From contig NZ_CAAKON010000021.1 of NCBI RefSeq assembly GCF_901212655.1, forward strand, positions 22,035 to 86,034: 64,000 nt of DNA. The letters run 5' to 3'. Of this stretch, positions 51,984 through 53,893 are shown one piece after another (within the stretch, counting starts at the first letter, position 1; each line of letters opens with the position of its first letter). Made by a program: the position numbers and the translations under genes. This stretch comes from Olsenella uli (GTDB lineage Bacteria; Actinomycetota; Coriobacteriia; Coriobacteriales; Atopobiaceae). The notes under the pieces are model-generated. The model saw only the letters and a list, made by a program, of their open reading frames with translations, was not told where the DNA came from and did not search any database.

Positions 51984-52012
51984 AACTTACTTTATGTTCG
52001 ATAGCCAAACAA
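51984..52012 (-). promoter_or_regulatory. Candidate ygeX operon promoter
   Basis: On the minus strand TTGTTT (52007-52012) and TAAGTT (51984-51989) are 17 bases apart. The -35 lies at the same place relative to the AAAAAGTTTG motif as at the ssnA promoter. Confidence 0.35.
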
Positions 52013-52020
52013 AAAGTTTG
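51996..52020. promoter_or_regulatory. Candidate purine-module operator upstream of ygeX
   Basis: GTTCG-ATAGC-CAAAC-AAAAA-GTTTG: a palindrome with half-sites every 10 bases. Its first 15 bases match the motif before the permease at 13 of 15 positions. The site overlaps the candidate promoter. The rest of the 557-base gap (51877-52433) shows only a terminator. Confidence 0.6.
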
Positions 52021-52267
52021 TTATCCCATTTGTACCGCAGTAGCCGGTAGGTTGCAAGAAAGAAGTCCGGGCACTTCGCAACCCGCCGCGAGCGTTGCAT
52101 AATCGCCCGCGAGCGGCAGGCGAAACAGCGCCTGCAAAGCCAGCTTCACGATCGCCTCAAGATCTCGTCAACCGCGCTCCCCGCACGGGTGTAAGCCCCC
52201 AGCCACCACGTGTCTCACATGGGTCCTGACTCGCAAGCAGGCGGCGCGCGCACAGGCGGCGGACGCA

Positions 52268-52307
52268 CGAAAAACGGCCCCTTGTCACAGATAGCGGCAA
52301 GGGGCCG
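52268..52307 (-). terminator. Terminator after the purine permease gene
   Basis: Perfect 10-bp stem CGGCCCCTTG / CAAGGGGCCG with a 13-base loop, followed on the minus strand by TTTTTCGT. Confidence 0.88.
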
Positions 52308-52433
52308 CACGGGGGCTCGGTGGGTGCTACGGCCCGTATCGCCTTGTACCTGACCCTCTTTGTGGGCAGATCCTCTTCGTGGGCGGGCTCCCCTCATGAA
52401 CGAGCCCTCTCTAGGCCCGCTTCTCCCTGTCGC

Positions 52434-53774
52434 CTACTCCGCGGGCTCGGCGTTCTCCTCGGGGACGATGATGTTGAGCAGGAACACCACGATGAACGAG
52501 ACCACCAGCGAGCTGCCGAAGATGTTCTGCGCAAGCTGCGGCAGGAACTGCAGGATCTCGGGCACGGCGCCGATGCCCACGCCAAGGGCGAGCGAGATGC
52601 CGATGATCATCTTGTTGCGGTAGTTGAGCGGCTGCTCGCACAGCAGCTGGATGCCCGAGAGCGTGATGGCCGCGAACACCGTGACGGTGGCGCCGCCAAG
52701 CACCGGCTGCGGGATGGTGGCCATGAGGGTGCTGAACTTGGGGCAGATGCCGGCCACGAGCATCACGGCCGCCACCATGGCGAACACACGCTTGGCAACC
52801 ACCTTGGTGGTGCAGATGAGGCCTACGTTTTGGCTGTACGGGTCGGTGGGCAGGCCACCGATGCAGGCGCCGATCATGCCGCAGATGCTCTGTCCCTTGA
52901 TGGCGCCGCCGAGCTCCTTGTCGGTTGCGTCGCGCCCAAAGCCGCCCATGGCGGTGGAGGACACGTCACCGATGGTCTGCACGGCCTGGACCACGTACAT
53001 CAATATCATGAGCGCGATGGCGTCGGGATGGAACTCGAGCCCGAAGTGGAACGGGATGGGCACGGAGACCCATGCCGCGCTGGCCACGTTGCCAAAGTCG
53101 ATGACGTCACCCATGAGCAGGGCCAGGGCATAGCCCACGATGATGCCGATGATCATGCCCGAGACCTTGATGTAGCCCTTGCCAAACAGGCTGCAGGCAA
53201 GCGTCACGCCAAGCGTCACGAGGGCGAGGATCCAGAACTGGGGCGAGCCAAACGTGCCGGCCGCCTTGGCAGCCGAGCCGCCGCCCATATAGTTGATCGC
53301 CGTCTGGTAGAGCGACAGGCCGATGGACAGTACCACCGTTCCACTGACGATGGGCGGGAAGAACTTCCTGATCTTCTCCATGAACATGCCCAGGAAGATC
53401 GAGGCGAAACCCGCCACCAGTTGCGAGCCAAAGATAGCCGCGATGCCGTACTGGGTGCCGATCATGGTGAGGATGGGCATGTAGGCAAACGCGACACCCA
53501 TGACGCTGGGCAGACCCATGCCGAAGCCAACCACCGGGAAAAGCTGGAGCAGCGTGGTGATGCCACCGATGATCATCGCCGCCTGGATGAGCATCGTCTC
53601 GTCGGCCGTCGACAGGTTGAGCGACGCCGCGATGAGCATGGGCGGGGTGATGTTGCCCACGAGCATCGCCAGCACGTGCTGCATGGCCTGCGGGAAGGCC
53701 ATGCCGAACGAGGGCTTGCCGTTGAGCTTGTACAGCTCGGCCTGACCACCCGTCATCTCGCTTGTAGTAGCCAA
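52434..53774 (-). CDS. NCS2-family xanthine/uric acid permease
   Basis: A 446-residue membrane transporter with about 12-14 helices. The NCS2 signature region is clear: GGLPTDPYSQNVGLICTTK, where the QN-x-G-x4-T-K motif is typical of the xanthine/uric acid branch rather than uracil carriers. An earlier SVMGVAFAYMP block is also conserved. Substrate choice between xanthine and urate cannot be read. It starts at TTG 53774 with GGAG six bases upstream; an in-frame ATG seven codons in is possible. Confidence 0.92.
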   Translation of the reverse strand: MATTSEMTGGQAELYKLNGKPSFGMAFPQAMQHVLAMLVGNITPPMLIAASLNLSTADETMLIQAAMIIGGITTLLQLFPVVGFGMGLPSVMGVAFAYMPILTMIGTQYGIAAIFGSQLVAGFASIFLGMFMEKIRKFFPPIVSGTVVLSIGLSLYQTAINYMGGGSAAKAAGTFGSPQFWILALVTLGVTLACSLFGKGYIKVSGMIIGIIVGYALALLMGDVIDFGNVASAAWVSVPIPFHFGLEFHPDAIALMILMYVVQAVQTIGDVSSTAMGGFGRDATDKELGGAIKGQSICGMIGACIGGLPTDPYSQNVGLICTTKVVAKRVFAMVAAVMLVAGICPKFSTLMATIPQPVLGGATVTVFAAITLSGIQLLCEQPLNYRNKMIIGISLALGVGIGAVPEILQFLPQLAQNIFGSSLVVSFIVVFLLNIIVPEENAEPAE

Positions 53775-53878
53775 AGCACTCTCCTCTCACGTTCCTCCAA
53801 ACGCACCGCGGGGGTCCACGCCCCCAGGCACGCGCAAGGGGCCGGCACCGCTCGCCTGTCCCCTATTCCTTACTAACA

Positions 53879-53893
53879 GTTTGATTGCCAAAC
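53879..53893. promoter_or_regulatory. Candidate purine-module operator upstream of the permease
   Basis: GTTTG-ATTGC-CAAAC, a perfect 5+5 palindrome that also satisfies the T-N11-A rule for LysR-type sites. It lies 105 bases before the start codon, between the permease and the upstream xanthine-dehydrogenase gene. Confidence 0.6.

What the first reader, a model, noticed from the sequence alone, without database searches (positions are those of the whole stretch)
51996..53893. Shared palindromic operator in front of purine-module promoters
GTTCGATAGCCAAAC (51996-52010, ygeX), GTTTGATTGCCAAAC (53879-53893, permease) and GTCTGGTAGCCAAAT (42698-42712, yqeC) are near-identical palindromes at separate promoters. 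The ssnA promoter shares CAAAAAGTTTG with the ygeX site. Half-sites repeat at 10-base intervals, one DNA turn, and fit T-N11-A. No regulator gene with this obvious role is inside the module, so an unlinked repressor or activator of the whole regulon is implied.
Basis: partly seen in the sequence, partly recalled or inferred. Interest (0 to 1): 0.75.

Follow-up and report, generated by a model that had tools for sequence, protein, structure and literature searches.

The report
Uric-acid gene switch in gut bacteria
Four promoters of a gut bacterium's uric-acid and purine breakdown genes carry the same paired DNA docking site, and comparison of related genomes points to one sensor-type regulator protein that probably switches the set on and off.

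Summary
The letters reported are there and the site is real, but its unit is a different one: a 15-bp palindrome, CNNAC-N5-GTNNG (best form C[A/T]AACAAAAAGTT[A/T]G), used in pairs with starts 20 bp apart. A matrix trained on relatives ranks the ygeX, ssnA, xanthine-permease and yqeB/yqeC promoters as the four best pairs in the window; no pair in 200 shuffles comes near. The site recurs at ygeX in related actinobacteria and in Oscillospiraceae-type Firmicutes, mostly just downstream of the -10 where one can be recognised. The best regulator candidate is a YheO-like PAS_6 + HTH_22 protein. It co-occurs with ygeX (62 genomes have both, 67 neither, 11 one), its gene has the site upstream (36 of 41 examined; control 1 of 204), and 62 of 62 genomes with both have sites. 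It is not in the window, but lies beside ssnA or a permease in all 10 relatives mapped. Sigma-54 is absent from 18 of 18 relatives, so the DioR control predicted for clostridia cannot apply. A ModE-MocA fusion is unlikely: two genomes lack the ModE domain yet keep sites. Repression is likely; binding and ligand (urate or xanthine?) are untested.

The parts
51986..52000 (-). operator unit 1 at ygeX (CTTACTTTATGTTCG on +)
   Evidence: PWM 12.6; partner 20 bp away
52006..52020 (-). operator unit 2 at ygeX (CAAACAAAAAGTTTG on +), consensus match, 8 bp downstream of the -10
   Evidence: PWM 22.6, best in window; letters and gap checked
52029..52034 (-). ygeX -10 (TACAAA)
   Evidence: 17-bp spacing to TTGCAA, read from sequence
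52052..52057 (-). ygeX -35 (TTGCAA)
53869..53883 (-). operator unit 1 at the xanthine permease (CTTACTAACAGTTTG on +)
   Evidence: PWM 14.7
53889..53903 (-). operator unit 2 at the xanthine permease (CAAACTACCTGTAAG on +)
   Evidence: PWM 10.3
42688..42702 (+). operator unit 1 between yqeB and yqeC (CACACTATAAGTCTG); overlaps the yqeC -10
   Evidence: PWM 14.4
42708..42722 (+). operator unit 2, overlaps the yqeC start codon (CAAATGAACTGTATG)
   Evidence: PWM 7.3
42671..42676 (+). yqeC -35 (TTGACT)
42693..42698 (+). yqeC -10 (TATAAG), 16-bp spacer
62212..62226 (-). degenerate operator unit 1 at ssnA (CTAATCATTATTCAG on +)
   Evidence: PWM 4.8, 20 bp from a strong unit
62232..62246 (-). operator unit 2 at ssnA (CAGACAAAAAGTTTG on +)
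   Evidence: PWM 20.7, second best in window
50665..51882 (-). ygeX (diaminopropionate ammonia-lyase-like), target; ygeY, ygeW, arcC, modE-mocA, hyuA and ridA follow on the same strand
52434..53774 (-). NCS2 xanthine permease (pbuX/ncs2), target
   Evidence: TIGR00801 over cut-off; TIGR03173 best match but below its cut-off
60635..61990 (-). ssnA, target; first gene of ssnA-ygfK-fdx-xdh
   Evidence: NF005540 and TIGR03314 over cut-off from residue 57-58 of the ORF; ATG at 61990
57385..60618 (-). ygfK (ORF as listed; the family match starts at residue 81)
   Evidence: TIGR03315 over cut-off
53992..56865 (-). selenium-dependent xanthine dehydrogenase
   Evidence: TIGR03311 over cut-off
42711..43433 (+). 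yqeC, target
   Evidence: TIGR03172 over cut-off
41727..42563 (-). yqeB, divergent from yqeC, possible second target of the same operator
   Evidence: TIGR03309 over cut-off
45515..46507 (-). ModE-type HTH fused to MocA-like NTP transferase; rival regulator
   Evidence: PF00126 and TIGR00637 N-terminus below cut-off, PF12804 over cut-off

Best explanation
The sites are operators of one purine/uric-acid catabolic regulon. Each operator is two 15-bp palindromes with starts 20 bp apart (two helical turns), presumably bound by two dimers on one face of the DNA. The binder is most likely a YheO-like regulator (N-terminal PAS_6 sensor, C-terminal HTH_22) encoded elsewhere in this genome. It probably represses: where promoter boxes can be recognised, the operator mostly lies on the -10 or at the transcription start. 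It probably controls its own gene as well, and is released when its PAS domain senses a purine such as urate or xanthine. Shown by sequence: the operator, its paired build, its conservation, its place in promoters, its linkage and co-occurrence with the regulator, and sites upstream of the regulator. Inferred: physical binding, repression, ligand, and presence of the regulator in this particular genome.
For: Four best pairs in the window are the four promoters; the best of 200 shuffles is far below. ygeX upstream 250 bp with PWM >=14: 19 of 22 actinobacterial loci (other stretches 19 of 1339) and 28 of 58 other loci (8 of 2907). In 140 genomes of one family: PAS_6 in 70, ygeX in 65, both in 62, Fisher p 1.6e-26. 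Sites with <=1 mismatch: 154 in 62 of 62 genomes with both (control pattern 11); 0 in the 3 ygeX-only genomes; 3 in the 8 PAS_6-only genomes; 29 in the 67 with neither (control 12). The 41 perfect sites among 150 listed rows all lie in PAS_6/ygeX genomes. Regulator upstream 400 bp with PWM >=14: 36 of 41 examined (of 76 PAS_6 genes found), control 1 of 204. With a PWM trained on 14 ygeX-promoter sites only: 33 of 41, control 1 of 204. Firmicutes PAS_6 genes with a locus, PWM >=12: 17 of 30, control 2 of 146. String ISKYTLY in the predicted recognition helix in 41 of 41 family regulators and 24 of 30 Firmicutes PAS_6 proteins. Unit 7-11 bp after the -10 in 38 of 43 ygeX promoters in which boxes (up to 2 mismatches each) were found near a unit of >=12. 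Precedent: a YheO-family protein, Cj1387c/CfiR, is reported as repressor of its neighbour (PMC4519771, abstract and passages).
Against: No binding data. The window's genome is not held, so the regulator there is inferred. 5 of 41 regulators have no unit >=14 (L086, L089, L093, L145, L148). 33 of 80 ygeX upstream regions have no unit >=14; among the 61 of 80 at >=12 many Firmicutes ones are AT-rich variants such as CAAAAAAATTTTTAG that lack the inner AC/GT. 27 of 123 listed sites in PAS_6/ygeX genomes lie far from both genes or on other contigs; I looked at the neighbours of only part of them. 17 of 67 genomes with neither gene have a <=1-mismatch site, and 5 of 8 PAS_6-only genomes have none. 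2 of 6 paralogues with another recognition helix also have a unit >=12. Many regulators are divergent from ssnA or a permease, so a site between them need not be autoregulatory. ssnA and the permease in the window have no promoter boxes that I could recognise. Genomes and contexts are related, so counts are not independent.
Confidence: 0.78

Rival explanations
1. The ModE-type HTH fused to MocA (45515-46507), encoded in the module, binds the operators and ties the regulon to molybdenum or cofactor supply.
For: It is a DNA-binding-type domain inside the module; 18 of 20 related genomes have a match; one perfect site lies in front of modABC in a relative (L213).
Against: No ModE-domain match in G013 and G014 (2 of 20 genomes), which keep a perfect site next to ygeX and a unit upstream of the PAS_6 gene. 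Matches are below the family's cut-off in all 20.
Confidence: 0.07
2. The same regulator acts mainly as an activator, or as a switch between repressor and activator.
For: ssnA and the permease in the window lack -35/-10 boxes that I could recognise; some variant sites lie about 80-120 bp upstream of ygeX in Firmicutes.
Against: The usual place is downstream of the -10, in Firmicutes next to near-consensus promoters; the yqeC operator covers its -10.
Confidence: 0.15
3. A LysR-type regulator binds the T-N11-A palindromes.
For: T-N11-A fits formally. A LysR_Se subfamily has been proposed for selenium genes, next to selA/selB/selD (PMC5322559, passages).
Against: The genome-wide link found here is with PAS_6/HTH_22; T-N11-A fits very many palindromes. 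LysR genes were not tested for co-occurrence.
Confidence: 0.03
4. The element acts in RNA: a small 5' leader hairpin with an AAAAA loop.
For: It usually lies at or after the expected transcription start and AAAAA on the sense strand is common.
Against: In the window's ygeX and in one of the two units of L001, L002, L003 and L012 the A-tract is on the other strand and the spacer varies; the yqeC unit 1 overlaps the -10, so it is not all transcribed; no Rfam family reaches its gathering score in the window.
Confidence: 0.02
5. Sigma-54 control by a DioR-like enhancer-binding protein, as predicted for the same genes in Clostridium.
For: DioR's predicted regulon is nearly the same gene list (PMC6615313, passages).
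Against: No sigma-54 DNA-binding domain in 18 of 18 related genomes, while 4 of 14 control genomes ring; no excess of -24/-12 sites in the window (10 found, 12.8 expected).
Confidence: 0.01

Closest known systems
DioR sigma-54 regulon of Clostridioides/Clostridium (predicted, PMC6615313, passages seen)
   Same: Nearly the same target list: dpaL/ygeX, pyrC, argE, tdcF, yqeB, pbuX, ygeW-ygfK-ssnA-ygeY, yqeC-ygfJ-yqeB-xdhC.
   Different: Other regulator family and other promoter type (-24/-12); sigma-54 missing in 18 of 18 related genomes.
CfiR (Cj1387c) of Campylobacter jejuni, YheO-like PAS_6 + HTH repressor (PMC4519771, abstract and passages seen)
   Same: Same domain order; reported as a repressor; linked to an L-PSP (RidA-type) gene, and the window's module also has one.
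   Different: One neighbouring target reported, not in purine catabolism; I saw no operator sequence in the passages.
YheO of E. coli and PAS_6 paralogues beside ridA-like genes in Firmicutes
   Same: PAS_6 domain; E. coli is the one control genome that rings (that this is YheO is recalled).
   Different: The Firmicutes paralogues are 27-31% identical to the L005 protein and differ in the recognition helix.
ssnA RNA motif RF03031
   Same: Cis-regulatory element near ssnA in three Firmicutes loci.
   Different: RNA family; not matched in the window.

Membership tests
Regulon of a YheO-like PAS_6/HTH_22 regulator | Regulator with PF08348 and PF13309 | tested here: met
   Both domains over cut-off in L005:3413-4063; PF08348 once in each of 16 of 16 related genomes. 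In the window's own genome not testable.
Regulon of a YheO-like PAS_6/HTH_22 regulator | Operator upstream of the regulator's own gene | tested here: met
   36 of 41 examined of 76 found, control 1 of 204; 33 of 41 with a matrix trained at ygeX only
Regulon of a YheO-like PAS_6/HTH_22 regulator | Sites occur with the regulator, not merely with ygeX | tested here: inconclusive
   62 of 62 with both have sites and 0 of 3 ygeX-only, but only 3 of 8 PAS_6-only genomes do; the last two groups are small
Regulon of a YheO-like PAS_6/HTH_22 regulator | The protein binds the operator | not testable with these tools
   needs EMSA or footprint
LysR-type operator | T-N11-A palindrome | tested here: met
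   fits formally, but is not specific
LysR-type operator | LysR regulator linked to or co-occurring with the sites | not tested
   LysR genes were not counted
ModE regulon | ModE DNA-binding domain in every genome with the sites | tested here: not met
   no match in 2 of 20 genomes that keep the sites
DioR/sigma-54 regulon | sigma-54 factor in the genome | tested here: not met
   0 of 18 related genomes
DioR/sigma-54 regulon | -24/-12 promoters at the genes | tested here: not met
   recalled consensus with up to 2 mismatches: 10 matches, 12.8 expected, none in the four promoter regions
ssnA RNA (RF03031) | covariance-model match at the gathering score | tested here: not met
   no match in window; matches in L021, L031, L060, the three loci scanned

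The most novel reading that the evidence does not exclude
A PAS_6 domain is a direct purine (urate or xanthine) sensor. One PAS_6/HTH_22 repressor with a paired 15-bp operator runs the whole anaerobic uric-acid pathway together with its selenium/molybdenum cofactor supply in gut Actinobacteriota and Firmicutes, a replacement of the sigma-54 regulator predicted in clostridia for the same genes.
Probability: 0.4. Interest if true: 0.75.

Novelty: new variant of a known kind. Interest (0 to 1): 0.62.

Why it matters
Gut anaerobes that break down uric acid may matter for host urate levels. In the listings and passages I saw, the only regulation named for this gene set is DioR in clostridia and a Crp site in E. 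coli (searches; passages 31, 66, 67, 81). The finding names a candidate regulator, a 35-bp operator and a target list, so induction can be tested directly. It also offers a DNA motif for a regulator family for which I found none in the listings and passages seen. It predicts that purine breakdown, permeases and Se/Mo cofactor genes respond together.

Tried and rejected

A first count of sites upstream of the regulators (14 of 41 against 21 of 122) was wrong because loci with the gene on the minus strand were not turned; one search repeats it turned. The same slip affected the training (those loci contributed the wrong 350 bp), and that matrix was partly trained on regions tested; one search repeats the test with ygeX sites only. 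One search failed for its gene hits (missing query file) and was redone. The seeds (97 matches against 1 in one Markov draw per sequence) were chosen, so that contrast is descriptive. The site list was cut at 150 rows; totals use the full per-genome table. Regulators examined are the 41 of 76 PAS_6 genes that came with a locus, best-scoring first; the 30 that came with one.

Papers: none of the motif strings was found. Two 2023 papers on the gut cluster, looked up by DOIs from memory, are not held, so a regulator described there cannot be excluded.

Full report
WHAT THE WINDOW HOLDS. The window comes from an actinobacterium close to Thermophilibacter and Olsenella: the nearest ygeX orthologues are 88-90% identical, and the named ones belong to those genera. 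I call the group Atopobiaceae from recall; the genome search only says 'family of G003', the genome of T. mediterraneus. Positions 41727-62158 carry a purine/uric-acid module. NCBIfam names yqeC, yqeB, ygeW, ygfK, ssnA, a selenium-dependent xanthine dehydrogenase and an NCS2 permease over cut-offs; RidA has PF01042.

OBSERVATION. The conserved unit is the other register, C-N-N-A-C-N5-G-T-N-N-G, best form C[A/T]AACAAAAAGTT[A/T]G. In the window it comes in pairs with starts 20 bp apart: ygeX 51986-52000 + 52006-52020, permease 53869-53883 + 53889-53903, yqeB/yqeC 42688-42702 + 42708-42722, ssnA 62212-62226 (weak) + 62232-62246.

CHANCE. A symmetric matrix trained on relatives, without the window, scores these four as the four best pairs (35.2, 25.5, 25.0, 21.6; next 8.0). 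In 200 dinucleotide shuffles the best pair was 9.7; single units of 14 or more turned up 16 times in the 200 shuffles, and the window has four. A matrix from 14 ygeX-promoter sites of relatives alone gives the same four on top. In relatives, 51.5% of 171 distinct contexts around a strong unit have a second unit (score 5 or more) at exactly 20 bp on one side; the next spacing, 24 bp, has 9.4%. These contexts are related to each other.

CONSERVATION. In 80 ygeX loci plus the window (1.39 Mb) seed motifs with up to 2 mismatches occur 97 times, once in a Markov control (seeds chosen). In the 250 bp upstream of ygeX a unit of 14 or more occurs in 19 of 22 actinobacterial loci, against 19 of 1339 other stretches (some of which are other true sites), and in 28 of 58 other loci, mostly Oscillospiraceae-type Firmicutes by title, against 8 of 2907. 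So 33 of 80 have none at that level. L008, L019 and L020 have none there; L019 and L020 have a perfect one 3' of ygeX, in L019 in front of ygeY. Of 43 ygeX promoters with a unit of 12 or more and recognisable boxes (up to 2 mismatches each, looked for within -6 to +16 of the unit), 38 have the unit 7-11 bp after the -10. Neighbours of sites in relatives include ygeX, ygeY, ncs2, ssnA-ygfK-xdh, yqeC (4 of 4 loci with a yqeC hit, unit scores 8.6-15.0) and modABC, and yqeB, AzgA-like permeases, a YedF/SirA-like protein and a second xdh-like gene (22 loci looked at; the permeases and the YedF-like protein named by reading translations).

THE REGULATOR. In L005 a divergent gene with its own site encodes a protein with PAS_6 (PF08348, E 3.7e-37) and HTH_22 (PF13309, E 1.8e-14). 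The window has no such gene (tblastn). PF08348 occurs exactly once in each of 16 of 16 related genomes. In 140 genomes of the family it is in 70 and ygeX in 65 (E <= 1e-80); both in 62, PAS_6 only 8, ygeX only 3, neither 67, Fisher p 1.6e-26. The motif with at most 1 mismatch occurs 154 times in the 62 genomes with both, in every one of them, against 11 for the reversed control pattern; 0 times in the 3 ygeX-only genomes; 3 times in the 8 PAS_6-only genomes (control 1); 29 times, in 17 genomes, in the 67 with neither (control 12). Of the 123 listed sites in genomes with PAS_6 or ygeX, 24 lie within 450 bp upstream of a PAS_6 domain, 38 upstream of ygeX, 12 next to ygeX otherwise, 22 within 25 kb, and 27 elsewhere.

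Of 41 regulator genes (of 76 found), 36 have a unit scoring 14 or more within 400 bp upstream, against 1 of 204 control stretches of the same loci; 33 of 41 against 1 of 204 with the ygeX-only matrix. In Firmicutes 25 of 27 genomes have PAS_6, and 17 of 30 genes with a locus have a unit of 12 or more, control 2 of 146. All 41 family regulators and 24 of 30 Firmicutes ones share the string ISKYTLY in the predicted recognition helix; six paralogues, 27-31% identical to the L005 protein and five of them beside a ridA-like gene, differ there, yet 2 of these 6 also have a unit of 12 or more. L005 itself has ISKYSFY. In the 10 relatives whose regulator region I mapped, it sits beside a permease, ssnA or both (L204-L213).

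MECHANISM. Shown: position, build, co-occurrence. Inferred: binding and repression. In the window, ygeX has TTGCAA-17-TACAAA with unit 2 starting 8 bp after the -10, and yqeC has TTGACT-16-TATAAG with unit 1 over the -10 and unit 2 over the start codon. ssnA and the permease have no boxes I could recognise, so activation is not excluded there. A YheO-family protein in Campylobacter, CfiR, is reported as a repressor of its neighbour (PMC4519771, abstract and passages); another PAS regulator, in Streptomyces, is said to repress eight genes and activate two (PMC10717218, abstract and passages; that it is PAS_6/HTH_22 was not checked). A purine ligand is a guess from the target genes.

RIVALS. The ModE-HTH/MocA fusion in the module: no ModE-domain match in 2 of 20 genomes (G013, G014) that keep a perfect site. 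Sigma-54/DioR, predicted for nearly the same genes in Clostridium (PMC6615313, passages; discussed in PMC11448449, passages): no sigma-54 in 18 of 18 relatives. An RNA element: the A-tract is found on either strand and one unit overlaps a -10; no Rfam match in the window. LysR: not tested beyond the motif.

NOVELTY. Text searches for the regulator family, the cluster and the motif (listings) and passages of PMC12507026 (which mentions a Crp site in E. coli) and PMC12990295 showed no named regulator for this cluster in these groups. Two 2023 papers could not be read. The kind of system, a repressor with a small regulon, is known; the pairing of this protein family, this paired operator and this pathway appears new within those searches.

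Noticed in passing
window 62143-63018 (+): ORF without any Pfam match at E <= 0.01; its later part is conserved at 49-63% identity in 10 related loci, in each on the strand opposite to ygeX. Function unknown.
   Followed up: partly
window 45515-46507 (-): ModE-type DNA-binding domain fused to a MocA-like cytidylyltransferase, inside the module.
   Followed up: partly
L021:2368-2417, L031:824-871, L060:1987-2034: ssnA RNA motif RF03031 downstream of the divergent PAS_6 regulator's start, in front of ssnA, in three Firmicutes loci; no match in the window. 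Two layers of control may exist there.
   Followed up: partly
L021, L023, L024, L041, L064, upstream of ygeX and of the regulator: AT-rich variant palindromes like CTAAA-N5-TTTAG appear at both places in the same genomes, as if operator and regulator had drifted together.
   Followed up: no
genomes G066, G067, G161, G164: Two PAS_6 genes on opposite strands within about 1 kb of each other.
   Followed up: no
L213:10867-10881: Perfect operator upstream of a modABC-moaA gene row in one relative: molybdate uptake may belong to the regulon there. No unit among the window's 25 best lies in front of its modA.
   Followed up: partly
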